From Planctomycetota bacterium (lineage in GTDB: Bacteria; Planctomycetota; Phycisphaerae; Phycisphaerales; SM1A02), in NCBI GenBank assembly GCA_027618565.1, contig JAQCEQ010000016.1, forward strand, positions 1 to 57,367: DNA of 57,367 nt, in the 5' to 3' direction. Below, in pieces: positions 1 through 14,107 of the stretch. The position numbers and the translations under genes are program-made. How positions within the stretch are numbered: position 1 is the first letter of the stretch; every line of letters starts with the position of its first letter. Below the pieces are notes generated by a model. The model did no database searches and was not told the DNA's origin. It saw only the letters and a list, made by a program, of their open reading frames with translations.

Positions 1-460
1 GCGCATCTCGTGCTGGCGCTGGGATGTCATAGGGACACAGCAGCGGATCAACTTCCCAGACCTTCTTGATCAGGTTGGATCATTCTTGATCAGCTCGCGC
101 CACGATCGTGACGGAATGCGCCGCGGCTTGAGCGCACGATGCTCGATGATTTCAATCGCCGCGCTTGCGAGCGCACCACACCCCTGCTGCGCTGCTGCCG
201 CGGACTCGCACGCGGCCTCCTCCGCACGCTTCCTGCGCTGGCCGCGCATCTTGTTGGAATACCAGCCGTAGTAACGCACCATCTGAAAGCGCTTATCCGA
301 AATGTGCTGCGTGATCGCCGCGATGAAATCGCATGCCGTGAATACCTGAAAGTTGCGCTTGATCTTCGCGTTCATTCCCGAGCGATAGAGAATCGAATCA
401 CCCGAACGATTCACCTGCATCTTCGCCACGGAGAACGGATTGCGAACAATGTATTGCTAG
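1..460 (-). pseudogene. IS91/IS801-type transposase remnant, C-terminal part
   Basis: Reading leftward from about 460, the translation has the late catalytic-region features of IS91-like (Transposase_32) proteins: an RNPFS segment, then MQVN..G.SILYRS, then TQHISDKRFQMVRYYGWYS, then a basic RGQRRKR stretch. The N-terminal zinc-binding and HUH parts are absent. The frame is lost near 70-100, where CTGATCAAGAA occurs twice, 20 bp apart; skipping one copy restores the expected ELIKKVWEVDPLLCP. A second frame change near 10-25 would restore an HEMR motif, as in intact relatives. The element also runs off the window edge. It is therefore a decayed fragment, not an active transposon. An open frame of 119 codons from the ATG at 429 survives but is not expected to be functional. 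Confidence 0.8.
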
Positions 461-1275
461 ATAGAGCCATCGCTTGGATACCCCAAAGCAATAGCAATAG
501 AAGCACAGGCACGCCATACCTTAGACGCCTCGTCCTCGCTGAGATATTTACGAAAGCTTCCGATATTATTGAAAAGCGGCTGATTGATCTGCATGTTTCT
601 ATAGGAAGTATGCGGAATCTTTGTGCCGTATTCTGATTCATCAAGGGGTAATTGCCCACTTGTAATTTCAGTAGTCTCGGGTTCTGAATGACCTGACTTC
701 AGTTCCTCGGTTGTGGGTTCATTTTTGACATACCATTCGACAGGCTCATCGTGAAAATTAAGTTGCTCAGTTTCAAAACTGAAGCCTAAGAAATCCATGA
801 CTCGAGTCATTGTCAGCTCGGGTTGAGTCACTAGATCTTCATACAAAATCGAGATGCATTGAGGATGCTTTGCCCAGCGCAACACGCGTCTGTTATCAGA
901 TTTCCATCGTCTAATTGATTTGCCGATATTCCCGTAGCGCCGTTTCAGCGAGGCCACAGTATCCTTGGGGTTTCTTGAGATCAAAACGATCTTTGTTGAT
1001 GGCGCGCAATCTAAAATAAAGCGTAAATTGCGAACATGCTTTGGCGTTTTTTCAACCCAAAAGCGTAAGCCTTCCGAGGCTGTTTTTTCCTCAAACTTTA
1101 AGACATTGTTCCGGTATTTTGTGTAGTTTTCTTTTCTGGCGATACCAGTCTCAACTGGAAGACCGTATATCTGCGGATGAGCTGCAATGATCCGCGTTAA
1201 AATAGATGTTCCTGAATGGCCACACCCGCAGACATGAATACCACCGTTAAATTTTTTTCGCCAGAGTCTCCACAT
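457..1275 (-). CDS. Sulfotransferase family protein
   Basis: This 272-aa protein looks like a PAPS-dependent sulfotransferase. The 5'-phosphosulfate loop is near residues 17-24 (CGHSGTSI), and the 3'-phosphate signature is near residues 95-110 (LISRNPKDTVASLKRR). WVEKTPKH is also typical of the family. Such enzymes transfer sulfate to sugars or other acceptors; the acceptor here is unknown. The coding sequence is clearly richer in A and T than the rest of the window and sits beside a transposase remnant, which suggests horizontal transfer. Its TAG stop is followed in the same frame by the transposase remnant, so the natural C-terminus may be slightly altered, although it already reaches the usual final helix. 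Confidence 0.8.
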   Translation of the reverse strand: MWRLWRKKFNGGIHVCGCGHSGTSILTRIIAAHPQIYGLPVETGIARKENYTKYRNNVLKFEEKTASEGLRFWVEKTPKHVRNLRFILDCAPSTKIVLISRNPKDTVASLKRRYGNIGKSIRRWKSDNRRVLRWAKHPQCISILYEDLVTQPELTMTRVMDFLGFSFETEQLNFHDEPVEWYVKNEPTTEELKSGHSEPETTEITSGQLPLDESEYGTKIPHTSYRNMQINQPLFNNIGSFRKYLSEDEASKVWRACASIAIALGYPSDGSI

Positions 1276-1412: not shown

Positions 1413-1670
1413 ATTGATAGAAATTCGCTTTCCCAGCGTCGCGGGCGCGCGCCCGACACGTCCACTGTGAAGCGGTGATTCCATACGTTTAGTGTAACTC
1501 CGCAGTGGTAACCCCTCAGTGCCGAAATGCAAATATCGGGCGACCATGCGGCCGAGCGTAAAAACGAAAGATGGTCACTCGGCGAAATGCGGCGGACTTT
1601 CTTGTGCAATTGCTGAAGCTGTGTGCCTGGATGCTCGCCTGCGACACTGGAAAAGCGAATTCCTATCAAT
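1413..1670. repeat. Imperfect inverted-repeat pair, MITE-like element
   Basis: The arms 1413-1447 and 1636-1670 are reverse complements of each other, starting ATTGATAG then AATTCGCTTT, with about 29 of 36 positions matching. They enclose about 190 bp with no convincing gene. The arrangement resembles a small non-autonomous mobile element, or the remains of one, at the boundary between the AT-rich edge and the GC-rich chromosome. No target-site duplication is obvious. The 413-bp stretch 1276-1688 holds only this element and an AT-rich spacer (1276-1412). Confidence 0.55.
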
Positions 1671-1688
1671 CTCCAGTACCCTCCCCCC

Positions 1689-2894
1689 ATGCCCCGCCGA
1701 GTCTGCGTCGTTGCCGCGCTTCGCACGCCTGTCGGCCGCCACGGCGGCTCGCTGTCCACCATTCGACCCGATGACCTCGCCGCGCACGTGATTCGCGCGG
1801 TGGTGGACCGCACCGGGATCGACCCTGCGATCATCGACGATGTTTACCTTGGCGCCACCAACCAGGCGGGCGAAGACAATCGCAATGTCGCGCGCATGGC
1901 GTCGCTCATCGCGGGGTTGCCGGTCACGGTTCCTGGCGCGACGGTCAATCGACTCTGCGCCTCGGGGCTGGAGGCGATCCACATCGCCGCCCGCATGATT
2001 GAGTCGGGGCAAGGCGATGTCATGATCGCCGGCGGCGTGGAGTCCATGAGCCGTGCGCCGTATGTGCTGAGCAAGTCCGAGCAGGCATTTGGTCGAGGAC
2101 AGGAATTGGTGGACTCGACGATCGGGTGGAGGTTTGTGAATCCTCGCCTCGCGGCTGCGTACCCGCCCATTTCGCTAGGCGAGACCGCGGAGTGTGTGGC
2201 GCGCCAGCACGGCGTGTCGCGCGCGGACCAAGATGCCTTCGCGCTCTCCAGCCAGCAGAAGTGGGCGGCGGCTCAGGCGGCGGGCAAGTTTGACGCGGAG
2301 ATCGTGCCGGTGGAGATCCCGCAGGGCAAGAAGCCGCCGATTCGTTTCACGACCGACGAGCACCCGCGCCCCGACACGACGATTGAGAAGTTGGCGGCGC
2401 TGAAGCCGTGCTTCTCGAAGGAGGCGGACGCCACCGTCACCGCGGGCAACTCGTCCGGCATCAACGACGGTGCCGCCGCGCTGCTGCTCATGGAAGTTGG
2501 GCGCGCCGCGGCGCTTGGCCTGAAGCCCCTTGCGTTCATCGGCGCGGGCGCGTCGGCGGGAGTGGATCCTTCGGTCATGGGCATCGGCCCGGTGCCGGCG
2601 ATCCAGAAACTGGCGGCTCGGGCAGGCGTGGACCTGAAGTCCGTCGACCTCTTTGAGATCAACGAAGCCTTTGCCGCGCAGTCGGTGGCGTGCGTGCGCG
2701 CGTTGGGACTGGACGCCGCGCGAGTGAACGTCAACGGCGGCGCGATCGCGATCGGCCACCCGCTCGGCTGCAGCGGCGCACGAATCACCTGCACGCTCAT
2801 CCACGAAATGGTGCGACGCGACGCCAAGCGCGGGATGGCGTCGCTGTGCATCGGGGTAGGCCAGGGGCTGGCACTCTTGGTCGAGCGGGACTGA
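1689..2894 (+). CDS. Thiolase (acetyl-CoA acyltransferase, PcaF-like)
   Basis: This 401-aa thiolase cleaves a 3-ketoacyl-CoA with CoA to acetyl-CoA and a shortened acyl-CoA, or runs the reverse condensation. The nucleophile is Cys90 in NRLCASG. His357 (GHPLGCSG) and Cys387 (CIGVGQG) complete the active site. The early segment [16 protein letters not shown] resembles 3-oxoadipyl-CoA thiolases. The ATG at 1689 is preferred because the open frame upstream runs through the inverted repeat and gives a non-family extension of 22 residues. The gene converges on the aminotransferase of the adjacent catabolic operon (70-bp gap) and probably performs the last step for it. Substrate chain length cannot be read from the sequence. 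Confidence 0.9.
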
Positions 2895-2964
2895 GGGTCT
2901 TGGTCCCACCGATAACCGAGGGCAGACATTGGGAGCGCCACCGCGATGACCTCCCCGCGCGGAC

Positions 2965-4326
2965 TCACCCCGCCGCGACGATTCGCTTGAACCCGGCTTC
3001 CATCGCGGCGACCAAGGAGTCGACTTCCGCCTCGGCCATGGCCGTGGACAGCATTGCCGTCCCGACCAAGAGGAACCCTTCGTCAAACAGGTGGTCGAGC
3101 AGCACCTTGAGCTGGCGCGTCTCTTCGGGGCTTGCGTACGCGTCCCGGTAGTTCTGTGGCACGCGCGACTTCATGTGCACTCGGAACATGGAGCCTCCGC
3201 CAGCGACGCACGCGCACATGCCCGTTCGGCGGGCTGCCTCGCGAATCCCCGCTCGCGCGCGCTCGCCGAGCGCATTGACTCGTGCCACGGCTGCCGCATC
3301 GAAGTGCTCCATCGCCACGCGGCCTGCGGTCATCGTCATCGGATTTGCCGAGAATGTCCCCGACAGCGGGTAGAGCAACTTCGCCGCACCGGGATTCATG
3401 ACTTCCATGACCGCGGCACGGCCGGCCACCGCACCAACGGGGAAGCCGCCGCCGATCGCCTTCCCCATCGCCGTCAGGTCGGCATTCACCTCGTACCTCG
3501 CCTGGAGGCCGCCAACCTCGGTCCGGAAGGTCATGACCTCGTCGGCCACGAAGAGCGCGCCATTGGCCTGCGCCCATTCGGCAATCGCATGCACGAATGC
3601 CTTGTCCGCCGGCTCCAATCCGACTCGGTGTGGCATGAGGTCCAGCAACACGCACGCCAACTGGCTCCGGTGCTCGTTCAGCAGAGCGATGGACCGTTCG
3701 ATGTCGTTGAATGGGATCACTACGACATCATCAAGCGAAGAGCGCGGCGCGCCATGCACCAGCGGCACGTTGGCCGGATGGTCGATGCTGCCCCAGTTCT
3801 GCGGAGTCGATTCCTGGCTGGTTTCGACATAGTCGTAACTGCCGTGATACGCCCCTTCCGCCTTGGCGATCATGGGACGGCCCGTGAAGGCTCGCGCAGC
3901 CTTGACCGCCGCCATCACAGCTTCGGAGCCGGAGTTGACGAATCGGATCCGGTCAAATCCGGCGCTGCGCGAGCACATGTGCTCCGCGTGCAGCACCTCC
4001 GCCTCGGTCGCCATCATGAACGCCGTGCCGCGCGCAAGCTGTGCGGCCGCCGCTTCCACGATGGGCGGGAAAGCGTGCCCGTGAATGAGCGACGCCATGT
4101 TGTTGGAGAAATCGATGCGCGTCACGCCGTCGACGTCAGTCACTCGGCACCCACGCCCAAACGAGACATACGGCGGGTACGGCGACCGCAGCACGGTGTT
4201 GCGGCTCACGCCGCCTGGCATCACCTTCTTCGCGCGCTCGAACAGCTCGAGACTCCGGCTGGACTTCGGCTGAGAGGCGATTCCCTGCGTTGTTGCCGCC
4301 TCTGCGGGTCCTGGCTTGGTGCTCAT
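2965..4326 (-). CDS. Class III PLP aminotransferase, GSAM-like / beta-transaminase-like
   Basis: This 453-aa protein is a fold-type I, class III PLP enzyme of the glutamate-1-semialdehyde aminomutase branch. It has SGSEA near residues 132-136, the cofactor Asp262 in ADEVMTFR and the Schiff-base Lys289 in AMGKAIGGG. The beta-phenylalanine aminotransferases belong to this branch, and PGGVSR near residues 38-42 places an Arg about where those enzymes are recalled to bind the beta-amino acid carboxylate. A heme-pathway role is less likely because the neighbours are a KamA aminomutase and CoA-transferase. The ATG at 4326 follows an AAGGA ribosome site; a TTG five codons upstream is the alternative. 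It is last in the kamA-CoA-transferase operon. Confidence 0.85.
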   Translation of the reverse strand: MSTKPGPAEAATTQGIASQPKSSRSLELFERAKKVMPGGVSRNTVLRSPYPPYVSFGRGCRVTDVDGVTRIDFSNNMASLIHGHAFPPIVEAAAAQLARGTAFMMATEAEVLHAEHMCSRSAGFDRIRFVNSGSEAVMAAVKAARAFTGRPMIAKAEGAYHGSYDYVETSQESTPQNWGSIDHPANVPLVHGAPRSSLDDVVVIPFNDIERSIALLNEHRSQLACVLLDLMPHRVGLEPADKAFVHAIAEWAQANGALFVADEVMTFRTEVGGLQARYEVNADLTAMGKAIGGGFPVGAVAGRAAVMEVMNPGAAKLLYPLSGTFSANPMTMTAGRVAMEHFDAAAVARVNALGERARAGIREAARRTGMCACVAGGGSMFRVHMKSRVPQNYRDAYASPEETRQLKVLLDHLFDEGFLLVGTAMLSTAMAEAEVDSLVAAMEAGFKRIVAAG

Positions 4327-4337
4327 GTCAGTGTCCT

Positions 4338-5027
4338 TCAATGCCCACTCGGGCGCGACTCAGATCGCAGGATCGGCGCGCCGGTCCGCTCCTGCACGAA
4401 TTCGAACGAGACACCGGGCGCCAACTCGACCAATTCGAAGCCGCGCGCCGTGATGTCGATCACCGCAAGATCAGAATAGATGCGATTCACCACACCTCGC
4501 CCCGTGAGCGGATAGGTGCACTGTGTGACGAGCTTGGGCTCACCGTCCTTGGTGGTGTGCGTGGTCATCACATAGACATTCTTGACGCCCGCCACCAGGT
4601 CCATCGCGCCACCCACCGCGGGAATCGCATCGTCCGCGCCGGTGGACCAGTTTGCCAGGTCGCCGTTCGCGGCCACCTGCAGCGCACCCAGCACGCTCAG
4701 GTCCAGGTGCCCACCGCGGATCATCGCAAAACTGGTCGCCTGGTCAAAGAACGCCGCACCTGGCATCATCGTGACCTGCCGCTTCCCGGCGTTGATGAGT
4801 TCCGGGTCACCCTGCCCCGCGGCGGGCGACGGCCCCATGCCGAGCAATCCATTCTCCGTGTGATAGACCAGCGTCCGGCCCTCGGGGACACACTTGGCCA
4901 CCAGCTCCGGAATGCCAATGCCAAGGTTGACATACGAACCGTTGGGGATGTCCTGCGCGAGGCGGCGAGCGATGTCCTCGCGGGTCCAGCCGATCGCCGC
5001 GCGGGTGCCAGTCGCTGCACTGTTCAT
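4338..5027 (-). CDS. 3-oxoacid (3-oxoadipate-type) CoA-transferase subunit B
   Basis: This 229-aa beta subunit belongs to the family I CoA-transferases. It carries the catalytic glutamate in HTENGLLGMGP (Glu58), LGIGIPELVA near the N-terminus and the SFAMIRGGHLDLSVLGALQV segment. The stretch from GDLANWSTGADDAIPAVGG onward is very like PcaJ (succinyl-CoA:3-oxoadipate CoA-transferase). With subunit A it would activate a beta-keto acid to its CoA ester. Its ATG overlaps the TGA of subunit A by 4 bp, so the two are translationally coupled. The specific keto acid is not determinable from the sequence. Confidence 0.9.
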   Translation of the reverse strand: MNSAATGTRAAIGWTREDIARRLAQDIPNGSYVNLGIGIPELVAKCVPEGRTLVYHTENGLLGMGPSPAAGQGDPELINAGKRQVTMMPGAAFFDQATSFAMIRGGHLDLSVLGALQVAANGDLANWSTGADDAIPAVGGAMDLVAGVKNVYVMTTHTTKDGEPKLVTQCTYPLTGRGVVNRIYSDLAVIDITARGFELVELAPGVSFEFVQERTGAPILRSESRPSGH

Positions 5028-5734
5028 GGGTAACTCGCCCCCGCTTCATTGAGCGCCGACTCCAGCTGCGGCTGGCCGACATGGACCACGCGATCGACAA
5101 AGATGCCCTGCGTGACGATTGCTTCGGCGTCCAGCGTGCCGGCATCAACGACCGCTGCCGCCTGCACAATCGTCACCTCGGCGGCCGTCGCCATCATCGG
5201 CGCGAAGTTGCGCGCGGTGCGGTGGAACATCACATTGCCGTGCGTGTCGGCAACTCGACCCTTGATGAGCGTGAAGTCAGCGCGGAGGCCATGCTCAAGC
5301 ACATGCTCCCGTCCGTTGAACACGCGCACTTCCTTGCCTTCAGCAAGCGGCGTGCCGACACCAGTCGGCGTGTAGAACGCCGCCACGCCCGCGCCACCGG
5401 CACGAATGCGCTCGGCCAGCGTGCCCTGCGGCACCAGCTCCAGCTGAACCTTGCCCGCGCGATAGAGGTCCGGGAAGACCGTCGACCCCGCCGTCTTGGG
5501 GAACGAACAGATGACCTTGGCGACCCGCTCGGCGCGCAAGAGCGCTGCGAGCCCGACCAAGCCCGTGCCCGTGTTGTTGCTGACCACAGTCAGTCCCTTC
5601 GCGCCCTGGTCGATCAGCGCATGGATCAACTCGATTGGAGATCCTGCCTCGCCGAAGCCACCGATCATCACGGTGGCGCCGTCGAAGATGTCCGTCACTG
5701 CTTCCGCGGGACTGGCGACGCGCTTGTCGATCAT
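5024..5734 (-). CDS. 3-oxoacid CoA-transferase subunit A
   Basis: This 236-aa alpha subunit of a family I CoA-transferase begins with the usual SPAEAV.DI.DG.TVMIGGFGEAGSP region. It has the VVSNNTGTG segment, PTGVGTPLAEGKEVRVFNG near the middle and GNVMFHRTARNFAP, all in the family order and at normal length. It forms the heteromer with the gene product at 4338-5027. Its start overlaps the stop of the radical SAM gene upstream by 4 bp and its stop overlaps the start of subunit B by 4 bp. This indicates one transcript and stoichiometric translation. Confidence 0.9.
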   Translation of the reverse strand: MIDKRVASPAEAVTDIFDGATVMIGGFGEAGSPIELIHALIDQGAKGLTVVSNNTGTGLVGLAALLRAERVAKVICSFPKTAGSTVFPDLYRAGKVQLELVPQGTLAERIRAGGAGVAAFYTPTGVGTPLAEGKEVRVFNGREHVLEHGLRADFTLIKGRVADTHGNVMFHRTARNFAPMMATAAEVTIVQAAAVVDAGTLDAEAIVTQGIFVDRVVHVGQPQLESALNEAGASYP

Positions 5735-7191
5735 CGGCAGGCGGTCGCAGGGATGGCGGCGTGCGTCTCACGAGCGGACTTGACGCGCGCGTACGAATAG
5801 AGGCCCGCCTCGTCAAAGAGGACCCGGTCGTCGTAGCCGTCAAACCACAGTGCCTCGGGATTCCGGCCCACAATGCAGACCTTGCCCTTGTCGCCCGCCT
5901 TGTACGCATTGCGGAGGATCTTGAAGAACACCACGCCGTTCTCGCTGCCCTTGAGGCCAGGGATCGCCTCGTTGGTCACCGCGTTGACTTCCGTCTTGCC
6001 CTTGTAGTGCGTGATCGAGAGCCGCGCGTGAGCCTCCACTCCGGAGAGCCCCTTCTGGGACTCGTTGAGCACCTGCCAAGCGCGCTCGATCGGCACATTG
6101 AAGGCGCGGTAGGCGATGATGTCGCGGCCGCAGAAGAAGTAATGGTTTTCGCCGCCGGCGCGCTTGAACTCGCGCTGCAGGACGCGGAGCGCGTCTGGGT
6201 CGTCGTTGATCCCCTTGATGATGGGCGCCTGGTTCTCCACCGTGATCCAGCCTCGGTCGCAGATGCCGCGCATCGCCGCGCCGGTCGCGGGAATCCAGAG
6301 GGGTGCACCGGAAGTGCCGGTGAGATAGTGCCCGTCCGCGCCGCGCACAAGGAACTCGTCGGGGTGCTCGAAGTGCACCATCATGTGGAGGCCGACCTCA
6401 GGGTACGACTCATGGAAGGCGTCCAGCATGGACAGGAACGCCGCGTCAAATCGCTGCGGGTAGAAAGCCATCTCCTTGGTGCCGATGCGGATCGACTCCA
6501 CGCCCGACTCGGCGAGCGCACCCAGCCACGCCGCGATCTTGGAGTTGTTGAGGACCATTGGGTCGCCGCCGGAAAGCAGGATCTCCCGCAACTTCTCGCG
6601 GCCGCAGGTCGGGTGAAGGCCGCCATTTGCCTTGACTTCCGAGTTGAATCGCTTGATGTAGGCGGTGACATCGGGAATCGTGGCCATCCCCTTCTTGGCC
6701 ACGGTGCCATCTTGCCGCTTGATCTCCTTGCGAGCGATCAATTCCTCGCGGTAGCAAAACCGGCAGTGTGCGGAGCAGGTGGAGACCACATACATGAGCC
6801 CCATCTCGTACTTGTGGAGGAGCCCTTCGACGGGGCTGTAGTCCATCTGGTTGCCGGGATCTTCCGAGCCCTGGAGGTCCATTGTCTCGTCGGCACTGGC
6901 CTTGACCAGGCGCTGCAGCGGCGGGCTGTTGCGAGCCAAGTCGAAGAAATGCCGTGTGAGCTTGACCGGCATGCGCTTCTCAACGTCACGCTCAGTCGCC
7001 TTGAGCACGCGCAGCTGGACGATTTCGTCGGAGCTGTAAAACGAGCGCATGTCCTCCGGCGCCTTCTCGTCGAAGAAGGGGTTCAACCCATTGATGATCT
7101 CGCGTTCGTGGCGAGTGTCCTCGACCTTCGCCAGGAAGGCCTGCTCGCGCGCGGTGGGGGCGTATTCGTAGGGGTCGGATGGCGTTGACAT
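5731..7191 (-). CDS. kamA: KamA-family radical SAM amino acid 2,3-aminomutase
   Basis: This 486-aa protein has the radical SAM cluster ligands Cys139, Cys143 and Cys146 (CSAHCRFC). It also has KamA landmarks: EILLSGGDP, NQAPIIKGIND and a C-terminal HYKGKTEV that aligns with the PLP-lysine region of lysine 2,3-aminomutase (putative Lys399). The reaction would move an alpha-amino group to the beta carbon using SAM, a 4Fe-4S cluster and PLP. One of two aspartates recalled to bind the lysine side-chain amine in KamA appears to be Ser392 here, so lysine is not a safe substrate call. It is about 70 residues longer than clostridial KamA. It is first in the operon, and 225 bp of upstream DNA can hold the promoter. 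Confidence 0.8.
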   Translation of the reverse strand: MSTPSDPYEYAPTAREQAFLAKVEDTRHEREIINGLNPFFDEKAPEDMRSFYSSDEIVQLRVLKATERDVEKRMPVKLTRHFFDLARNSPPLQRLVKASADETMDLQGSEDPGNQMDYSPVEGLLHKYEMGLMYVVSTCSAHCRFCYREELIARKEIKRQDGTVAKKGMATIPDVTAYIKRFNSEVKANGGLHPTCGREKLREILLSGGDPMVLNNSKIAAWLGALAESGVESIRIGTKEMAFYPQRFDAAFLSMLDAFHESYPEVGLHMMVHFEHPDEFLVRGADGHYLTGTSGAPLWIPATGAAMRGICDRGWITVENQAPIIKGINDDPDALRVLQREFKRAGGENHYFFCGRDIIAYRAFNVPIERAWQVLNESQKGLSGVEAHARLSITHYKGKTEVNAVTNEAIPGLKGSENGVVFFKILRNAYKAGDKGKVCIVGRNPEALWFDGYDDRVLFDEAGLYSYARVKSARETHAAIPATACR

Positions 7192-7386
7192 GGGAACTTC
7201 CAGGGTGTGCCAGCCTTATCGGCTCGGTGCGAGGGCAAACGGGACGCGGTGATTCGTATCGGCGGGGTGCGAAGTCTGAGAATATACACCCCCCAAGGGC
7301 TGGATCAATGCAACTCCGTGCACAGAAATAAGTTGTGGTGTGCATCGGCCGCCTCCGCTTCCGCCCATCGATCCGGCCCAGAAGGT

Positions 7387-7421
7387 GGTGAGATTCGATC
7401 CCTTAGGGGCCGAATCTCACC
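7387..7421. terminator. Hairpin at the end of the ABC permease gene
   Basis: GGTGAGATTCG at 7387-7397 pairs perfectly with CGAATCTCACC at 7411-7421, and a small inner CCC/GGG pairing lies in the loop. The hairpin covers the permease stop codon. No U-tract follows on the permease strand, so it may be a processing or Rho-assisted end rather than a classical intrinsic terminator. The remaining 7192-7386 holds no gene and presumably the promoter for the aminomutase operon. Confidence 0.4.
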
Positions 7422-8388
7422 CCCTTCGGGGGACCCATCGCCGCACCACCTCGTCGGCCGACACGCCGATGAGCAGCACGCCGCCGATCACGGCAAACTC
7501 CAGTTCCGACCCCAGGCCCAGCAAGATGATCGCGTTGCGCAGGACTTGGAGCACCGCCGTCCCCAGGATGATGCCGACCACGCTCACGCGCCCGCCGCGA
7601 AGGCTGCAGCCGCCAAGCACCGCGGCGGCGATGGCGTACAGCTCGTAGAAGTTTCCGAAGTCGCTTGGCTGCGCGCTCCCGATGTCGAAGATGAAGAGCA
7701 TCCCGCCCGCGCCGGCGAGGAACGCGCACGCCATGTAGGCCAGCGTGGTCAGTCGAGCCGTCGGGATTCCCGAGTGCCGCGCCGCCGACTCGTTGCTGCC
7801 GGTCGCCAGGAGCCATCGGCCCCACACCGTTCTGGAGAGGAACAGCCCGGTGAACACGGCGAGCACGATGAGAGGGACCGCCGTCGCCGGGAGCCTGAAG
7901 GACTCGATCCCAGGGATCGCGATTTTCGCCAGCGCGATGTCTCGCAAGCCAGTGAACTCGCCGCGGAATCCCTGCGACTGGTCGTCGGTCATCCATCGAG
8001 CAACGCCGCGGTAGAGAAGCAATCCGCACAGCGTCACCAAGAATGGCTGCAGGCGGAGCCGCGTCACCAAGAGACCGTGCCCCACGCCAAGGAGTGCCGT
8101 CACGGCCAGCACCGCCGGCACCGCGGCCCACGGGCTCCACCCATGCTCCACCAGGAGCCACGGCGTGGCGATCCCGGCGAGGCACACGATCGAACCGATG
8201 GAGAGGTCGATACCCCCCGTGGCGATGACCAGCCCCGCGCCAATCCCAAGGATCGAGAAGAGCGCCGTCCGCTGGATGAGGTTCATCGCGTTGTACGCCG
8301 TGAGGAAGCCGCTCCCGAAGGATGCGGCGATCACGCAGATGATCACGAGCAGCACGATCAACCCGAGGTTCTTCTTCACGCCGTTCAC
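7417..8388 (-). CDS. Sugar ABC transporter permease (RbsC family)
   Basis: This 323-aa protein consists almost entirely of hydrophobic helices and has the branched-chain/ribose permease (BPD_transp_2) pattern: GAGLVIATGGIDLSIGSIV near residue 55 and later GNNES-like GSNESAARHSGI. It would form the membrane channel of a pentose or deoxysugar importer in the inner membrane. Its ATG overlaps the stop of the ATPase gene upstream by 4 bp. No periplasmic binding protein gene is next to it, so the substrate-binding partner must be elsewhere. Neighbouring mutarotase and FKP genes suggest L-fucose or L-rhamnose as cargo, which is inference from context. Confidence 0.87.
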   Translation of the reverse strand: MNGVKKNLGLIVLLVIICVIAASFGSGFLTAYNAMNLIQRTALFSILGIGAGLVIATGGIDLSIGSIVCLAGIATPWLLVEHGWSPWAAVPAVLAVTALLGVGHGLLVTRLRLQPFLVTLCGLLLYRGVARWMTDDQSQGFRGEFTGLRDIALAKIAIPGIESFRLPATAVPLIVLAVFTGLFLSRTVWGRWLLATGSNESAARHSGIPTARLTTLAYMACAFLAGAGGMLFIFDIGSAQPSDFGNFYELYAIAAAVLGGCSLRGGRVSVVGIILGTAVLQVLRNAIILLGLGSELEFAVIGGVLLIGVSADEVVRRWVPRRG

Positions 8389-9923
8389 GCCAGCACGCCT
8401 CCTGTCGCCAGGCGCAGGATCGAGGCACTGTCGATGCTTCCGCCCGCCAGCTCGCCGGCAATCGAACCGTCGTGCATCACAACGACTCGATCCGCCAAGA
8501 CCTCCAGTTCCTCCATCTCGCTCGAGGCGAAGAGCACCACGGCCCCGCCTCCCGCCGCCTCGCGAATGGCCTGGTGGATCTCGTGGCGCGCGGCGATGTC
8601 CACGCCGCGCGTCGGCTCATCCAAGAGCCAGAGTCGCGGCTTCATCGCCAACCACCTGGCAAAGAGCGTTTTCTGCTGGTTGCCGCCGGAGAGGGTCTGG
8701 ACGGCGCGATCTCGCGCGGCACTCGACATCCGAAGTCGCTCCATCGCCATCGTGACCATGCGTTGCTCAGCGGTTCGATCCACAATCCCTGCGCGCGAGC
8801 CACGCGGGAGCCACGCGACCGAGACATTCACCGCGACGGGGTCGCCCAGAAACAGCCCGTCTCGCGCGCGATCCTCGGGGACGATGGCCACACCCGCGTC
8901 GACTCGCGATGACACGGAACCCATGAGCGGCGAACCGTCCAGCATGATCTCGCCAACACAACGGGCCAGCCCGGCGATCGCCTCCAGCAGTTCCGTTCGG
9001 CCAGCACCGACCAGCCCCGCCAAACCAACGATGTCCCCGGGCGCAACGTGCAGGTCAACCGCGGCGCGTCTGCGATGGGTCGATACGACGCGGCGCAGAG
9101 TGAGCCCCCTCGTGGAGTCGCTCGTGACGCTCGGTGCGCTGGCCACTCGCGTCGTCGGCACCGCGAACGACTTCCCCACCATCAACTCCTCGATGCGCCC
9201 ACGCTTGATGTCCGCTCCCGCCAACTCCCCCGCCACGCAACCGTCTCGCAGCACCACGACCCGGTCGGCGACCCGGAGCACCTCGTTCAAGTGGTGCGTC
9301 ACGAACACGATCGCCTGGCCAGCATCGCGGAGCTCCCGCATGATCTGAAGCAGCCGCTCTGTCTCGTGCGCACTCAGGCTGGAGGTCGGCTCGTCCAGAA
9401 TCAGAATCCGGGCCCGAGCGCTGAGCGCCTTGGCGAACTCCACTTGCTGGCGCCTGGCGATGGAGAGGGACCCGCACAGGGTTGTCGGATCCACATCCAG
9501 TCCCACGCGCGCCAGCCATACAGCCGCCTCTCGCCGCATCGCCGCCGTGTCCATCCAGCCAAGTCGATGCGGCTCCCGACCAAGCATGATCGAGCCGGCA
9601 ACATCAAGGTTTTCAGCCAGATTGAGCTCTTGGTGCACCAGCGCGATGCCATGCTCGCGGGCCTCGCGCGTGTTGCGCAGCCGCAGGTCAGTTCCCCGCT
9701 CTGGCCCGTGGCCCGGTCCCTCCCCGTCCACCTCCTGCAAGGTCCCGGAGCTCGGTTCGATCACTCCAGCCAGGATCTTGAGCAGCGTGCTCTTCCCGGC
9801 ACCGTTCTCGCCCACGATTGCTAGCACTTCGCCCGCGCGCACATCCAAGCTGACCGAATCCAGCGCCTGCACCCCGACATAGTCGCGGCTCACATGGCAG
9901 GCTCGCAGCACGGTGCGTGGCAT
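8385..9923 (-). CDS. Sugar ABC transporter ATP-binding protein (RbsA/MglA type)
   Basis: This 512-aa tandem ATPase is typical of ribose/galactose importers. Domain 1 has Walker A GENGAGKST near residues 33-41 and Walker B ILILDEPTSSLS. Domain 2 has a degenerate P-loop GLVGAGRTEL, the VPEDRARDGLF motif characteristic of the family, signature LSGGNQQK and Walker B LWLLDEPTRGVD. Both are in the usual order and at the usual length of about 500 aa. The frame stays open far upstream on this strand, but the ATG at 9923 starts exactly at the family N-terminus. It powers the permease encoded immediately downstream. Its start lies head to head with the nucleosidase gene, leaving almost no room for a conventional promoter. 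Confidence 0.9.
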   Translation of the reverse strand: MPRTVLRACHVSRDYVGVQALDSVSLDVRAGEVLAIVGENGAGKSTLLKILAGVIEPSSGTLQEVDGEGPGHGPERGTDLRLRNTREAREHGIALVHQELNLAENLDVAGSIMLGREPHRLGWMDTAAMRREAAVWLARVGLDVDPTTLCGSLSIARRQQVEFAKALSARARILILDEPTSSLSAHETERLLQIMRELRDAGQAIVFVTHHLNEVLRVADRVVVLRDGCVAGELAGADIKRGRIEELMVGKSFAVPTTRVASAPSVTSDSTRGLTLRRVVSTHRRRAAVDLHVAPGDIVGLAGLVGAGRTELLEAIAGLARCVGEIMLDGSPLMGSVSSRVDAGVAIVPEDRARDGLFLGDPVAVNVSVAWLPRGSRAGIVDRTAEQRMVTMAMERLRMSSAARDRAVQTLSGGNQQKTLFARWLAMKPRLWLLDEPTRGVDIAARHEIHQAIREAAGGGAVVLFASSEMEELEVLADRVVVMHDGSIAGELAGGSIDSASILRLATGGVLA

Positions 9924-9948
9924 CGGATGGAGGCTACTCTTGCCAATC

Positions 9949-10722
9949 GTGGAAGCCCTGACGGACGATGCTGACTTCGCCCTCGCTCCGCTGCCAACTC
10001 GCACGGGGCGGCTGCTCCTCTTCGTCGCCATGCAGGCGGAGGCGGAACCAGTCGCTGCCGCACTCGCTCTCAAGAGTGTCGGCCCCGATGCATCGGGGAT
10101 GAGTGTCTGGGAGGGCAAGCGCGCTGCGACCGTGGTGACTCTGGTGACCGCTGGCCGAGATCCGCTCCTCGGAGTGGACCGCATCGGCCCGGTGAGCGCC
10201 GCATGGACACTGACGACCGCGCTCGTGGCACAACGACCGGACCTGGTCGTCAACATCGGCTCAGCCGGTGGGTTCCAGTCGCGGGGGCTGGCCGTGATGG
10301 ACCTGGTGGTTGGCTCTTGCAGCCAGTTCCACGACGCTCGCGTGGCGCTCCCGGGATTTGATCGCGCGGCACGAGCGCACACTCGCCTCTCGCTTGACGG
10401 CCGCGCCTGCAGCGAACTCGCCTCGGCACTGGGCGCGCGGCATGGCCCGGTGACGACAGGATCCAGCCTGGACGCGACGCCTGCAGAACTGGCGTGGTTC
10501 CAGGCAAGCACAGTCATGGCCAAGGACATGGAACTCGCGGCACTGGCAAGCGTCTGCCGTGCGCACGCAACTCCGCTCGTCGCCCTCAAGGGCATCACCG
10601 ACTTGGTCGATCACTCGGAGCCCACTGCCGAAGCCTTCACCAGGAACCTCGCAGCGACGACGGCACGACTGGCGATCGCGGCGCCAACCATGATCGACTG
10701 GCTCATCGGGGCTGGTCGCTAA
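9949..10722 (+). CDS. MTA/SAH nucleosidase-like phosphorylase-superfamily protein
   Basis: This protein of about 257 aa is of the purine nucleoside phosphorylase/uridine phosphorylase superfamily. LLLFVAMQAEAEPV is the N-terminal strand, NIGSAGGF is the phosphate/ribose loop, KDMELAALASVC carries the ribose-binding Met-Glu, and KGITD supplies the catalytic Asp. The order matches 5'-methylthioadenosine/S-adenosylhomocysteine nucleosidases. The start is uncertain: GTG at 9949 gives a normal N-terminus, while GTG at 9913 would overlap the divergent ATPase gene. The 3' end overlaps the convergent mutarotase gene by 20 bp. Hydrolysis of MTA or SAH is the best guess, but other N-ribosides are possible. 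Confidence 0.75.
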   Translation: MEALTDDADFALAPLPTRTGRLLLFVAMQAEAEPVAAALALKSVGPDASGMSVWEGKRAATVVTLVTAGRDPLLGVDRIGPVSAAWTLTTALVAQRPDLVVNIGSAGGFQSRGLAVMDLVVGSCSQFHDARVALPGFDRAARAHTRLSLDGRACSELASALGARHGPVTTGSSLDATPAELAWFQASTVMAKDMELAALASVCRAHATPLVALKGITDLVDHSEPTAEAFTRNLAATTARLAIAAPTMIDWLIGAGR

Positions 10723-11119: not shown

Positions 11120-14107
11120 GTGTCGCCGCGACGAACGCAGCATCCGCAGCAGCAGCCGAGTCAGCAGCCAGTCTTCGACCTGCTCATCGTGACGGCAGCG
11201 ACCACCGCACAGGCTCGCGGCTACCGGCAGGAATTAGCGTGGCGCAAGACTCACGGCCTCCTCCCCGGCATTGGCGCAACGATGGTGTTGGCGGACCCTC
11301 GCGGCAAGCGCGTCGGCAGCGGCGGGAGCACCATTCTTGCGTTGGATGCGGCAGCGCGCCGACTGGGAACGCGCCGGGGGAGACACGGGCCCGGGACACG
11401 CCGCGTGGCCATCATCCACTGCGGTGGCGACAGCCGTCGACTCCCGGCGTTCAGCGCGCACGGCAAGGTTTTCGCGCCAGTCTCGTGCCCGCTCGGGGAC
11501 GACGAGTGCGTCCTCACCAAGACCATCGCCGATCTCTGCTCGATCGTCCCTCGGCCCGGCCAAACCATCATCGCGTCGGGCGACATGATGTTGGGGCTGG
11601 CGGGGCACGCGATCGACCTCACCGGCGGCGATGTCACGGTCCTGACCACGCCACTCCCCTTTGAACGCGCCAGCCGGCATGGTGTGTTCGCCGTCACGGG
11701 CAGTCGCATCACTTCGGCGCTGCAAAAGCCGACTCGGGCGGAGGCGCGTGCCGCGGGCGCACTGCTGGCGGGGAATCGTGCGCTTACCGACACGGGTGTC
11801 ATTGCGCTGACGGCGAGCGCGGCACAGCGCCTGTGCCAGACCACCCGCCCGCTGCTCCCCGCGCTCAAGCGCGCCGCGCTGCCGCACATCGACCTCTACG
11901 ACCACATCACGCGCGCGATGGTGCCGGGCATTGGTGCGCTCGCCTACCGCACGCCCTACGAGCAGCGTGGGGTCTGGCACGACGCGTTTGGCCAACTGCG
12001 GCAGGCGCTTCGTGGGCTCGGCCGCCGCACCCGCGCGCGGGCTTCGCTCCAACTCCATGCGCAGGTCCTCCCACACTCGCCCTTTGATCACGCGGGCACG
12101 ACGAGACAGTACCTGGAGCTGCTCACGCGAGGGAGCTCTTCCGCTCGCACGGTGCAGGCCACGCTGCATTCGCGCGCTGGGACGATTCGATCACGCGGTG
12201 CCTACGCAATAGTTGATTGCGACCTCGACACTGCGCGGCTCGGCGGCGACAACCTCTGCGTCGGCCTTGGAATGCTCGGGCGGTCGATCGCGCTCCCACG
12301 CGGCTGCTGCTGCTTCGAAGTCCCGCTGCGGGATGGCCAGGCCGTTCGGGTCCTCCACGGCATCGACGATGACTTCAAGACTCCCTTCGGCAGCGGCGGG
12401 ACCATAGGCGGCGCATCGTTCGATCGATTCACTCGCCAGCACAGCCTTGACCCGCAGATGCTCCTGGACCCCACCGAGCGGGAGTACTCCCTGTGGACTG
12501 CACGATTATGGCCAGTGCTGCGCCGTGGCGTCGATGCGTCGCGCTTCCTTCAATGGATGCTGACGCCACGAGCGCGTCCGCCCCGCGCGTGGTTGGCTGC
12601 GCCTCGGGTCAGCGTCTCGCAACTCGCGACGTTGTGCGATGGACACGCCATGCTGGCGCACCACCTTGCATGCGTTGAGTACGGTCTGGCTGCTGCGCTC
12701 CCCAGCGACATCGCCACCAATCCACACGGCTCACCGCTCGCCGCGCACGCCAGGCTCACGCGCGACGACGCGCTCGCGCAGCTGTCCGGCGGCTACTCCC
12801 AACAGTTCGCCCGCGCAACGCTCCCACTTACCAAGGCACGCTTGGTGATGGCGGGTTCGGACCTCTCACGGCGCCATGGATCGACGAAGACTGCCGATGG
12901 ATTGCAGGCCGCCGCGATGGCGCTGGTTGGGCGAGCGGTGTCGGTGAGTGAACCTGCGCGCGGGCGCACGCGCGGGCGCGGGCGTCGCCTTCGCGCGGCC
13001 ATTCCCGCCGGTACCACCGTGGAAGCTGCGTCGCCCGTCCGCATCGATTTCGCTGGCGGCTGGAGCGACACGCCTCCGATCTGCATCGAGCACGGCGGCA
13101 CGGTCCTCAACGCCGCGGTCCTCCTCAATGGCGAATGCCCGATTCGCGCCACCGCCACGCTCACCACGGAGCCGGTCATCCGCATCCGCAGCGTCGACCA
13201 AGGGTGCCGCTGCGCGATCCGCGACACCGCAACGGCGCTTCGCTTTGACGATCCCAACCGCTGGGACGCGCTCCCGAAGGCCGCCATCGCACTCACGGGA
13301 ATCGTGCCGATTGGTACGCCGTCCACACAGTCGCTCGCAGCACTCCTGCGTGCGTTCGGCGGTGGCATCGACCTCACGATCAACAGCACGGTGCCCAAAG
13401 GCAGCGGATTGGGCACCAGCAGCATCCTTGGTGCCACGATCCTCGCGGCGATTCACACGCTCTGTCACGGCGACACGCCGCCGCTCCCTGCACTCATCCA
13501 GCAGACCAGCCAGTTGGAACAACTGATCTCCACGCGCGGGGGATGGCAGGACCAAGTCGGCGGGCTCTACGGCGGCGTCAAGATTTCGCGGACCACGCCA
13601 GGGGCTGAGCAGTCACCAGCCGTCATGCCCATCACCCTGACCGCGCGCACGGAGCGCGCACTGGCCGATCGCGGCGTGCTCTTCTACACGGGCATCCAGC
13701 GCATGGCTCGCGGGCTCCTGGAGACCGTCGTGGGCAACTACTTGCTTGGAGAGCCTGGCCGACTGCGCGCGATCCCGGAACTGAAGGCCTGCGCCGAGCG
13801 CGCGGCCGTGGCACTTGGCAAGGGCGACTTCGACGCGTTCGCCGAGTGCATCAACGAGAATCGACGACTGAAACTCATCATGGATCCCGCGAGCGTCACG
13901 CCGCAGGTGCAGCGGCTCATCGATCCGCTCCTCCCTCACCTCGCCGCGTGGTGCCCCTGCGGCGCCGGCGGCGGCGGGTTTGTGTTCCTGCTGGCGAAGA
14001 GCGCGCCGGCGGCTAAGAGGGTCAGGTCCATCGCAGTGTCCGCGGCCACCTCCGTGGGCCCTCTCACTCTGACCTCCACGGGCCTGCGGATCCACCGCTC
14101 GACCTAG
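11120..14107 (+). CDS. fkp: Bifunctional L-fucokinase / L-fucose-1-phosphate guanylyltransferase
   Basis: This protein of about 995 aa has the two-domain FKP architecture. The N-terminal half is a nucleotidyltransferase-like fold: DLLIVTAATTAQARGYRQEL near residue 20, GSGGSTILAL near 72 and HCGGDSRRLPAFSAHGK near 100. The C-terminal third is a GHMP kinase with APVRIDFAGGWSDTPP-like motif 1 near residue 640 and the phosphate loop PKGSGLGTSSILG. It converts L-fucose to fucose-1-phosphate and then GDP-L-fucose in the cytoplasm. The length agrees with the Bacteroides enzyme (about 950 aa). The GTG at 11120 precedes a low-complexity Gln-rich leader; the exact start is uncertain. It would feed fucosylated cell-surface glycans from scavenged fucose. 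Confidence 0.88.
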   Translation: MSPRRTQHPQQQPSQQPVFDLLIVTAATTAQARGYRQELAWRKTHGLLPGIGATMVLADPRGKRVGSGGSTILALDAAARRLGTRRGRHGPGTRRVAIIHCGGDSRRLPAFSAHGKVFAPVSCPLGDDECVLTKTIADLCSIVPRPGQTIIASGDMMLGLAGHAIDLTGGDVTVLTTPLPFERASRHGVFAVTGSRITSALQKPTRAEARAAGALLAGNRALTDTGVIALTASAAQRLCQTTRPLLPALKRAALPHIDLYDHITRAMVPGIGALAYRTPYEQRGVWHDAFGQLRQALRGLGRRTRARASLQLHAQVLPHSPFDHAGTTRQYLELLTRGSSSARTVQATLHSRAGTIRSRGAYAIVDCDLDTARLGGDNLCVGLGMLGRSIALPRGCCCFEVPLRDGQAVRVLHGIDDDFKTPFGSGGTIGGASFDRFTRQHSLDPQMLLDPTEREYSLWTARLWPVLRRGVDASRFLQWMLTPRARPPRAWLAAPRVSVSQLATLCDGHAMLAHHLACVEYGLAAALPSDIATNPHGSPLAAHARLTRDDALAQLSGGYSQQFARATLPLTKARLVMAGSDLSRRHGSTKTADGLQAAAMALVGRAVSVSEPARGRTRGRGRRLRAAIPAGTTVEAASPVRIDFAGGWSDTPPICIEHGGTVLNAAVLLNGECPIRATATLTTEPVIRIRSVDQGCRCAIRDTATALRFDDPNRWDALPKAAIALTGIVPIGTPSTQSLAALLRAFGGGIDLTINSTVPKGSGLGTSSILGATILAAIHTLCHGDTPPLPALIQQTSQLEQLISTRGGWQDQVGGLYGGVKISRTTPGAEQSPAVMPITLTARTERALADRGVLFYTGIQRMARGLLETVVGNYLLGEPGRLRAIPELKACAERAAVALGKGDFDAFAECINENRRLKLIMDPASVTPQVQRLIDPLLPHLAAWCPCGAGGGGFVFLLAKSAPAAKRVRSIAVSAATSVGPLTLTSTGLRIHRST

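What the first reader, a model, noticed from the sequence alone, without database searches (positions are those of the whole stretch)
1689..7191. Candidate pathway turning an alpha-amino acid into a beta-keto acid and then acetyl-CoA
The sequence shows a KamA-family aminomutase, two CoA-transferase subunits, a class III aminotransferase and a thiolase together. The first three genes are joined by 4-bp overlaps, the aminotransferase gene follows 11 bp later, and the thiolase is convergent. Read as chemistry: aminomutase makes a beta-amino acid, beta-transaminase makes a beta-keto acid, CoA-transferase activates it, and thiolase releases acetyl-CoA plus an acyl-CoA two carbons shorter. A biochemically described lysine route in Pseudomonas via N6-acetyl-beta-lysine and 3-oxo-6-acetamidohexanoate uses this step order. 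The PcaJ- and PcaF-like subunits suggest 3-oxoadipate as another candidate intermediate, which would come from 3-aminoadipate. The gene set as one operon is, as far as I know, not an established pathway.
Basis: partly seen in the sequence, partly recalled or inferred. Interest (0 to 1): 0.8.

Follow-up and report, generated by a model that had tools for sequence, protein, structure and literature searches.

The report
Radical-SAM amino-acid route to beta-ketoadipate
A conserved bacterial gene set appears to shift the amino group of an acidic amino acid, remove it, and feed the remaining carbon into the last two steps of the beta-ketoadipate pathway, a breakdown route I could not find described.

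Summary
In detail: KamA-like radical SAM protein, CoA-transferase A and B, class III aminotransferase and a convergent thiolase lie where stated. In 80 named loci, wherever there is room, CtA follows KAM in 77 of 77, CtB in 70 of 70, the aminotransferase in 64 of 64, the convergent thiolase in 52 of 60. The four-gene block recurs in 12 of 14 more distant loci. A Mesorhizobium plasmid has a version with a glutaconate-type CoA-transferase; one planctomycete has a different beta-transaminase and a thiolase over the PcaF cut-off.

Lysine is unlikely as substrate: both Asp that hold lysine in lysine 2,3-aminomutase are absent, the first replaced by Arg in 88 of 88. CoA-transferase and thiolase group with PcaIJ and PcaF-type enzymes. 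Best reading: 2-aminoadipate -> 3-aminoadipate -> 3-oxoadipate -> 3-oxoadipyl-CoA -> succinyl-CoA + acetyl-CoA. The scheme is well supported by inference. The substrate is not proven: glutamate and N6-acyl-lysine remain possible, and no 2-aminoadipate source was found in this genome. Nothing was tested biochemically.

The parts
5731..7191 (-). KAM: KamA-type radical SAM, PLP-dependent aminomutase of an unnamed subfamily; proposed 2,3-aminomutase for an acidic alpha-amino acid
   Evidence: NCBIfam KamA family E 1.2e-25, below all curated cut-offs; C139/C143/C146, R148, R356 and K399 in 88 of 88 aligned proteins; R356 opposite lysine-binding D293 of 2a5h
5024..5734 (-). CtA: CoA-transferase subunit A, PcaI type
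   Evidence: TIGR02429 323.8 bits over cut-off 128.5; nested among PcaIJ of pca operons
4338..5027 (-). CtB: CoA-transferase subunit B, PcaJ type
   Evidence: TIGR02428 291.5 bits over cut-off 243.55; E58-N59-G60 near-invariant (catalytic role of the Glu recalled); tree
2965..4326 (-). AT: class III aminotransferase, proposed beta-transaminase (ATG start; TTG at 4341 possible)
   Evidence: best solved match 6k8h at 381 bits, ahead of GSA aminomutases at about 200 bits; carboxylate-binding Arg in 76 of 76
1689..2894 (+). THL: thiolase of PcaF type, convergent with the operon
   Evidence: pcaF 548.9 bits, under cut-off 597; C90, H357, C387 and the GWRF covering loop near-invariant
7281..7308 (-). 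promoter-like site upstream of KAM (9 of 12 matches; consensus only)
   Evidence: 3 promoter-like sites in 1500-7600, 0.6 expected from shuffles; not evidence of function

Best explanation
The five genes encode one catabolic pathway. (1) KAM, a radical SAM and PLP enzyme, moves the alpha-amino group of an acidic amino acid, most likely L-2-aminoadipate, to C3, giving 3-aminoadipate. (2) AT transaminates it to 3-oxoadipate. (3) CtA/CtB takes CoA from succinyl-CoA to form 3-oxoadipyl-CoA. (4) THL cleaves this to acetyl-CoA and succinyl-CoA, which restores the CoA donor. An amino acid thus joins the last two steps of the beta-ketoadipate pathway by a route that needs no aromatic ring cleavage. 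Shown here: gene identities, conservation, residue patterns and phylogenetic placement. Inferred: every reaction, the substrate, and the order of steps 2 and 3 (the transaminase could act on the CoA thioester, as Kat does in lysine fermentation).
For: Synteny: CtA 77 of 77, CtB 70 of 70, AT 64 of 64, convergent THL 52 of 60; four-gene block in 12 of 14 more distant loci. Swaps that keep the chemistry: a glutaconate-type CoA-transferase in Mesorhizobium; a transaminase closest to beta-phenylalanine aminotransferase (4ao9, 403 bits) and a thiolase over the PcaF cut-off (647.9 of 597) in one gene row of G081. KAM: R148 and K399 kept, R356 in place of D293, in 88 of 88. In 9 of 9 lysine-type relatives both Asp are present. 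A published case, glutamate 2,3-aminomutase, also lacks the Asp pair, having Lys and Asn there (PMC3965090, passages). CtAB nests among PcaIJ of pca operons (supports 99 and 100), apart from a Sco group (92). THL lies in a PcaF-type clade (100) and carries the PcaF covering loop with R148 and R65 (PMC7337054, passages). The best-ranked thiolases in the plasmid collection that I looked at are from Deinococcus (58% and 56%), the second inside a pcaD-H-G-B operon.
Against: No source of 2-aminoadipate was found in this genome: no lysine 6-aminotransferase match at E 1e-60, and that family occurs in 7 of 22 KAM-positive relatives against 10 of 79 others (Fisher p 0.051). The saccharopine-type family does not track KAM (16 of 22 against 51 of 79, p 0.61). 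The window thiolase scores below the PcaF cut-off (548.9 of 597). The thiolase clade also holds a Comamonas fatty-acid thiolase without the loop, and a Thermus thiolase with the loop lies outside any pca operon. The Arg at the D293 place also occurs in two other uncharacterised KamA types, so it may not mark this substrate. THL is not within about 5 kb in 8 of 60 close loci (2 of the 8 have it farther off). Among 14 more distant loci it matches in L137 (54%) and, less alike and not convergent, in L132 (43%); 12 show no match, one of them (L139) for want of room. L138 has KAM without CtA, CtB, AT or THL. The structure model was poor in the active site (mean pLDDT 61.7).
Confidence: 0.52

Rival explanations
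1. Same scheme with L-glutamate: beta-glutamate, 3-oxoglutarate, 3-oxoglutaryl-CoA, then acetyl-CoA and malonyl-CoA (or acetoacetate after spontaneous decarboxylation).
For: R356 suits any acidic side chain (inference); known glutamate 2,3-aminomutases also lack the Asp pair. Glutamate needs no special supply.
Against: CtAB and THL group with enzymes of the C6 acid 3-oxoadipate, and one cluster holds a thiolase over the PcaF cut-off. KAM scores only 73.3 of 650 bits against the glutamate 2,3-aminomutase model and has Arg and Ser/Ile, not Lys and Asn.
Confidence: 0.17
2. Lysine or N6-acetyl-lysine route: beta-lysine or its acetyl form, 3-oxo-6-acetamidohexanoate, then 4-acetamidobutyryl-CoA and acetyl-CoA.
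For: N6-acetyl-lysine would need no Asp pair (inference).
Against: Both lysine-binding Asp are absent: Arg at the first place in 88 of 88, Ser392 and Ile393 at the second in 88 of 88. No further gene recurs at a fixed place beside the cluster.
Confidence: 0.12
3. The chain exists but for another alpha-amino acid (for example another acidic, phosphorylated or polyhydroxy one); the RpiR regulator with its SIS domain could hint at a sugar-phosphate-like signal.
For: Divergent RpiR gene in 39 of 68 close loci with room (domains); substrate not fixed by sequence.
Against: PcaIJ and PcaF kinship. No match to this regulator in the window's genome, though that search had no positive control, and none beside KAM in the sister record L033.
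Confidence: 0.15
4. The aminotransferase is the heme-pathway GSA aminomutase and the cluster is a chance neighbourhood.
For: HemL is its best NCBIfam model, and no protein over the HemL cut-off was found in this genome.
Against: 301.5 of 527.3 bits; nearer to 6k8h and ForI than to GSA aminomutases; the genome has no ALAD/HemB match at E 0.001; it follows KAM in 64 of 64 close loci with room.
Confidence: 0.02
5. CtAB and THL are simply the tail of aromatic degradation.
For: Kinship with PcaIJ and PcaF.
Against: Intradiol dioxygenase family PF00775 has no match in this genome and none over its cut-off in 17 of 22 KAM-positive relatives; no further gene recurs at a fixed place at the locus. G081, the genome of L137, does have such a dioxygenase, on another contig.
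Confidence: 0.02

Closest known systems
Lysine 2,3-aminomutase (KamA, 2a5h) and glutamate 2,3-aminomutase
   Same: Radical SAM family, CxxxCxxC cluster, PLP lysine, Arg for the alpha-carboxylate
   Different: Below all curated cut-offs; neither Asp-Asp (lysine) nor Lys-Asn (glutamate) in the side-chain site; Arg and Ser/Ile instead; longer protein
Beta-ketoadipate pathway end steps (PcaI, PcaJ, PcaF)
   Same: CtAB nests in PcaIJ; thiolase of PcaF type with its covering loop
   Different: Fed by an aminomutase and a transaminase (inferred), not by ring cleavage; thiolase gene convergent; window thiolase under the PcaF cut-off
Beta-transaminases (6k8h; beta-phenylalanine aminotransferase 4ao9)
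   Same: Class III family; carboxylate-binding Arg in the PGGxxR motif
   Different: Ring-contacting Val and Tyr of the Variovorax enzyme are Thr or Ala (74 of 76) and Met or Val (75 of 76) here
Lysine fermentation with Kat (HemL-like acyl-CoA beta-transaminase, PMC3149608, passages)
   Same: Uses aminomutase, HemL-like beta-transaminase, CoA-transferase and thiolase
   Different: Two aminomutases, a dehydrogenase and a cleavage enzyme; runs through acetoacetyl-CoA; Kat acts on CoA esters only
Pseudomonas lysine route via N6-acetyl-beta-lysine
   Same: Same order of reaction types
   Different: Needs a lysine-type aminomutase and an acetyltransferase, neither supported here

Membership tests
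Lysine 2,3-aminomutase | Curated cut-off of TIGR03820 (525.4 bits) | tested here: not met
   68.9 bits
Lysine 2,3-aminomutase | Two Asp that bind the lysine side chain (D293, D330 of 2a5h; numbers recalled, role in PMC3965090 passages) | tested here: not met
   Arg356 and Ser392/Ile393 in their places; second place depends on gap placement
KamA-type radical SAM aminomutases | CxxxCxxC, carboxylate Arg, PLP lysine | tested here: met
   C139, C143, C146, R148, K399 in 88 of 88; roles of R148 and K399 recalled for lysine 2,3-aminomutase
KamA-type radical SAM aminomutases | Aminomutase activity | not testable with these tools
   needs enzyme assay
Glutamate 2,3-aminomutase | Cut-off of TIGR04368 (650 bits) and Lys/Asn in place of the Asp pair | tested here: not met
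   73.3 bits; Arg and Ser/Ile
PcaIJ 3-oxoadipate CoA-transferase | Subfamily models and grouping with pca-operon enzymes | tested here: met
   Over both cut-offs, which also cover ScoAB; nested with supports 99 and 100
PcaIJ 3-oxoadipate CoA-transferase | Activity on 3-oxoadipate | not testable with these tools
   needs enzyme assay
PcaF 3-oxoadipyl-CoA thiolase | Equivalog cut-off of TIGR02430 (597 bits) | tested here: not met
   Window 548.9 bits; the thiolase of the G081 cluster meets it with 647.9
PcaF 3-oxoadipyl-CoA thiolase | Cys-His-Cys triad and long covering loop with R148 | tested here: met
   C90, H357, C387, GWRF loop, R65 (PMC7337054 passages)
Beta-amino-acid transaminases | Arg that binds the beta-amino acid carboxylate (R41 of the Variovorax enzyme, PMC9850050 passages) | tested here: met
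   76 of 76 aligned; alignments
HemL GSA aminomutase | Cut-off of TIGR00713 (527.3 bits) and presence of the heme pathway | tested here: not met
   301.5 bits; no HemB match in the genome

The most novel reading that the evidence does not exclude
KAM is the first member of a 2-aminoadipate 2,3-aminomutase family. With AT, CtAB and THL it forms an undescribed route from 2-aminoadipate, and so perhaps lysine, through 3-aminoadipate into the beta-ketoadipate pathway. The route is common in Phycisphaerales, occurs in other planctomycete families, and a KAM-AT-CoA-transferase version lies on a rhizobial plasmid predicted to be conjugative.
Probability: 0.48. Interest if true: 0.72.

Novelty: new variant of a known kind. 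Interest (0 to 1): 0.6.

Why it matters
If true, it links radical SAM amino-acid chemistry with the beta-ketoadipate pathway. It would give a function to a KamA subfamily found in many uncultured planctomycetes and name a metabolite, 3-aminoadipate, that is nearly absent from the literature searched (listing only: 2 papers for six spellings, neither on catabolism by its title). It also makes a well-defined enzyme set testable in vitro, with possible use for making beta-amino dicarboxylic acids.

Tried and rejected
AlphaFold model of KAM from 22 orthologues: mean pLDDT 61.7 and below 50 around the active site, so no fold search was made from it.

Saccharopine dehydrogenase family PF16653 as marker of a 2-aminoadipate supply: found in 67 of 101 genomes, no link with KAM (16 of 22 against 51 of 79, p 0.61). 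For the own-genome hit, the ORF I took it to lie in had no NCBIfam match at E 1e-15. Lysine 6-aminotransferase: borderline link, no match in this genome. For this count I took the 17 genomes with 272 bits or more, of which 12 are over the curated cut-off, and left out G098 (235 bits). Intradiol dioxygenase: no link (5 of 22 against 17 of 79, p 1.0); the two genomes under the family cut-off, G091 and G098, were left out.

R47 of the aminotransferase (ATG numbering) as a second carboxylate binder: rejected, only 60 of 76.

Paper searches: (aminomutase with CoA-transferase and thiolase) listed 10 papers, of which I took up PMC3149608. One search (the named intermediate of the lysine route) found none. 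(3-oxoglutarate, beta-glutamate, 3-aminoadipate, 3-oxoadipate with aminomutase) listed 3, 2 and 2 papers, none on such a route by title and abstract start; these I saw as listings only. Absence from print is claimed only for these searches in the held open-access library.

Rows dropped or invalid: L031 and L025 were read in a wrong frame by my scripts and are not counted. L025 is valid and L031. For the CoA-transferase tree 15 loci were asked for besides the window and L137; L106 and L129 fell out by my length filter or for want of a called ORF.
Full report
OBSERVATION. The five genes are present at the stated coordinates with the stated overlaps, gap and convergence. Family scans give a KamA-type radical SAM protein that falls below all curated cut-offs, a CoA-transferase pair over its subfamily cut-offs, a class III aminotransferase and a thiolase best matched by, but under the cut-offs of, 3-oxoadipyl-CoA thiolase models.

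CONSERVATION. In 101 genomes (own and 100 relatives), 22 hold a close KAM orthologue (68-100% identity, the window's own included, two of them in pieces) and 10 more only a distant KamA protein. In a sample of 392 genomes of the phylum, 22 hold one at E 1e-60 or better, 9 of them already in the first set. A scan of one genome per species confirmed 225 encoding stretches, of which the best 80 were kept. Of these 80 records 73 are titled as planctomycetes, 55 of them with a Phycisphaera-type name; the other 7 titles include two verrucomicrobial, one alphaproteobacterial and one Chitinophaga name, which I did not check. In those 80 loci, counting only those with enough sequence, CtA follows KAM in 77 of 77, CtB in 70 of 70, AT in 64 of 64, and a convergent thiolase lies within about 5 kb in 52 of 60. 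A divergent RpiR-type regulator (HTH_6 and SIS domains) lies upstream in 39 of 68. The window has no such gene there and has sugar-type ABC transporter genes upstream; its sister L033 shares the permease and also lacks the regulator beside KAM. Clustering of ORFs in 95 loci found no other gene at a fixed place apart from what look like shadow ORFs on the opposite strand; further clusters were scattered, in at most 10 loci, and were not family-searched.

FARTHER RELATIVES. Of 14 loci taken from genomes at order (1) or phylum (13) distance, 12 keep KAM-CtA-CtB-AT. L137 (genome G081, same order) is rearranged: the strand opposite to KAM carries RpiR, CtA, CtB, a thiolase and a different class III aminotransferase, read in that order. 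L138 has KAM and RpiR but none of the others within 18 kb. A thiolase match appears only in L137 (54%) and in L132 (43%, not convergent), and RpiR in 8 of 14. A Mesorhizobium plasmid (NZ_AP023244.1) has KAM (64% identity), a ferredoxin, an AT orthologue (58%), a CoA-transferase and a GlxA-type regulator.

REPLACEMENTS. The Mesorhizobium CoA-transferase beta subunit is of the glutaconate CoA-transferase type (best solved match 1poi), not the PcaJ type. The L137 aminotransferase is closest to beta-phenylalanine aminotransferase 4ao9 (403 bits) and other beta-transaminases, and is only 32-34% identical to AT proteins. The L137 thiolase passes the PcaF equivalog cut-off (647.9 of 597). Different solutions for the same step beside the same aminomutase are good evidence for the step itself. 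This is inference from gene context, not an assay.

KAM ACTIVE SITE. C139, C143 and C146, R148 and K399 are in all 88 aligned proteins. They match the cluster cysteines, the carboxylate Arg and the PLP lysine of lysine 2,3-aminomutase (alignments; residue roles recalled). The profile alignment to 2a5h sets R356 opposite D293, counted from the printed alignment; that stretch of the alignment is weak on its own (3.7 bits), and the alignments agree with it. With eight planctomycete proteins near the lysine 2,3-aminomutase model (L143-L150, 466-506 bits against a cut-off of 525) and L030, 9 of 9 show Asp at both places, whereas KAM shows Arg and Ser/Ile (the second place depends on a gap). Two other KamA types (L025 and L027; L026, L028, L029, L031, L032) also have Arg at the first place. 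In glutamate 2,3-aminomutases the two Asp are Lys and Asn (PMC3965090, passages seen). A basic residue at this site therefore has one published parallel with an acidic substrate.

AMINOTRANSFERASE. The best solved match is the Sphaerobacter enzyme 6k8h (381 bits), then ForI (326 bits), with GSA aminomutases near 200 bits. The Sphaerobacter enzyme acts on aromatic and aliphatic beta-amino acids (PMC10589169, passages). R41 of the Variovorax enzyme binds the substrate carboxylate (PMC9850050, passages), and R36 of the Sphaerobacter enzyme is suggested to do so (PMC10589169, passages). The equivalent Arg is in 76 of 76 aligned sequences. Valine and tyrosine that touch the aromatic ring in the Variovorax enzyme are mainly Thr or Ala and Met or Val here. 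The heme reading is unlikely: 301 of 527 bits and no HemB match in the genome. A protein over the HemL cut-off occurs in 1 of 22 KAM-positive and 30 of 79 other genomes (counted); this genome has none.

COA-TRANSFERASE AND THIOLASE. I looked at seven plasmid loci with the closer relatives of CtA or CtB: 6 of 7 have an IclR-type regulator gene beside the pair, and 4 of 7 have pcaF directly downstream; Pseudosulfitobacter and Tistrella have no thiolase beside it and Paracoccus has another thiolase two genes on. In a tree of both subunits (28 taxa, LG+G4, 1000 ultrafast bootstraps, rooted on E. coli AtoDA by choice) the KAM-linked pairs nest in this PcaIJ group (supports 99 and 100), apart from a Sco group (92) whose Bacillus member lies beside 3-hydroxybutyrate dehydrogenase. 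Among thiolases of the plasmid collection, the two highest rows listed are from Deinococcus (58% and 56%, rows taken at even steps of the ranking), the second inside a pcaD-pcaH-pcaG-pcaB operon and the first beside a CoA-transferase gene. In the thiolase tree (28 taxa) the KAM-linked thiolases fall in a PcaF-type clade (100), and that of L137 falls among PcaF/PaaJ proper (100). They share the covering loop with GWRF, and R65. In PcaF, T143-G146 and R148 of this loop contact the acyl chain (PMC7337054, passages). Against a strict reading, a Comamonas fatty-acid thiolase without that loop also falls in this clade on a long branch, and a Thermus thiolase with the loop lies beside a benzoate-CoA ligase gene, not in a pca operon. 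So clade and loop alone do not prove specificity.

SUBSTRATE. An acidic side chain in KAM and 3-oxoadipate-type enzymes downstream point to 2-aminoadipate. The cycle would be balanced, because thiolysis of 3-oxoadipyl-CoA returns the succinyl-CoA spent by the CoA-transferase (established chemistry of the beta-ketoadipate pathway). Against it, I found no source of 2-aminoadipate in this genome: no lysine 6-aminotransferase match and only a distant member of the saccharopine dehydrogenase family. Other sources, such as an aminoadipate semialdehyde dehydrogenase, were not searched for. Lysine 6-aminotransferase is weakly enriched with KAM (7 of 22 against 10 of 79, p 0.051), and three families were tested, so this is not significant. 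The aromatic origin of 3-oxoadipate is unlikely, because PF00775 has no match in this genome and none over its cut-off in 17 of 22 KAM-positive genomes; G081 does have one, on another contig.

ORDER OF STEPS. Kat, a HemL-like transaminase of lysine fermentation, acts only on CoA thioesters (PMC3149608, passages). AT could likewise act after CoA transfer; the sequence does not decide this.

NOVELTY. Searches of the held open-access library for 3-aminoadipate in six spellings found 2 papers, a meteorite study and a review of secondary metabolism (listings only). A search joining 2-aminoadipate, lysine degradation, 3-oxoadipate and aminomutase listed 2 papers holding three of the four terms, neither on such a route by title (listings only). 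The pathway is a new combination of known enzyme kinds with an uncharacterised aminomutase subfamily.

Noticed in passing
L091:9025-9882 and equivalents in 39 of 68 loci: Divergent RpiR-family regulator (HTH_6 plus SIS) upstream of KAM in many relatives; no match in the window's genome, a search without positive control.
   Followed up: partly
window 7417-10598: Sugar-type ABC permease and ATPase genes upstream of KAM on the same strand; L033 shares the permease.
   Followed up: no
window 11120-14107: Long ORF (995 aa) that by eye resembles a bifunctional fucokinase/fucose-1-phosphate guanylyltransferase (recalled, not searched).
   Followed up: no
window 457-1275: Small sulfotransferase-like protein (Sulfotransfer_3).
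   Followed up: no
L113 18137-19049: The place of the CoA-transferase alpha gene of the Mesorhizobium plasmid has no annotated gene; a 242-aa ORF there matches CoA_trans weakly (46 bits), so the gene may be incomplete.
   Followed up: partly
L113 1-9875: BREX defence genes lie on the same plasmid, upstream of the KAM cluster.
   Followed up: no
L138 8327-9757: KAM with RpiR but without CtA, CtB, AT or THL within 18 kb.
   Followed up: no
L077 and L081: Two copies of the cluster in one assembly (ALOHA_ZT_32), with a thiolase found beside only one of them; genome G049 likewise has two KAM copies.
   Followed up: no
G000 whole genome: No HemB match and no HemL over its cut-off; KAM-positive genomes rarely hold such a HemL (1 of 22), which may reflect heme auxotrophy.
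   Followed up: partly
L025-L029, L031, L032: Two other KamA types with Arg at the lysine-Asp place, functions not known to me.
   Followed up: partly
G027:C90:73163-74434: An AT-like protein (334 bits to the HemL model) in a genome without a KAM match.
   Followed up: no
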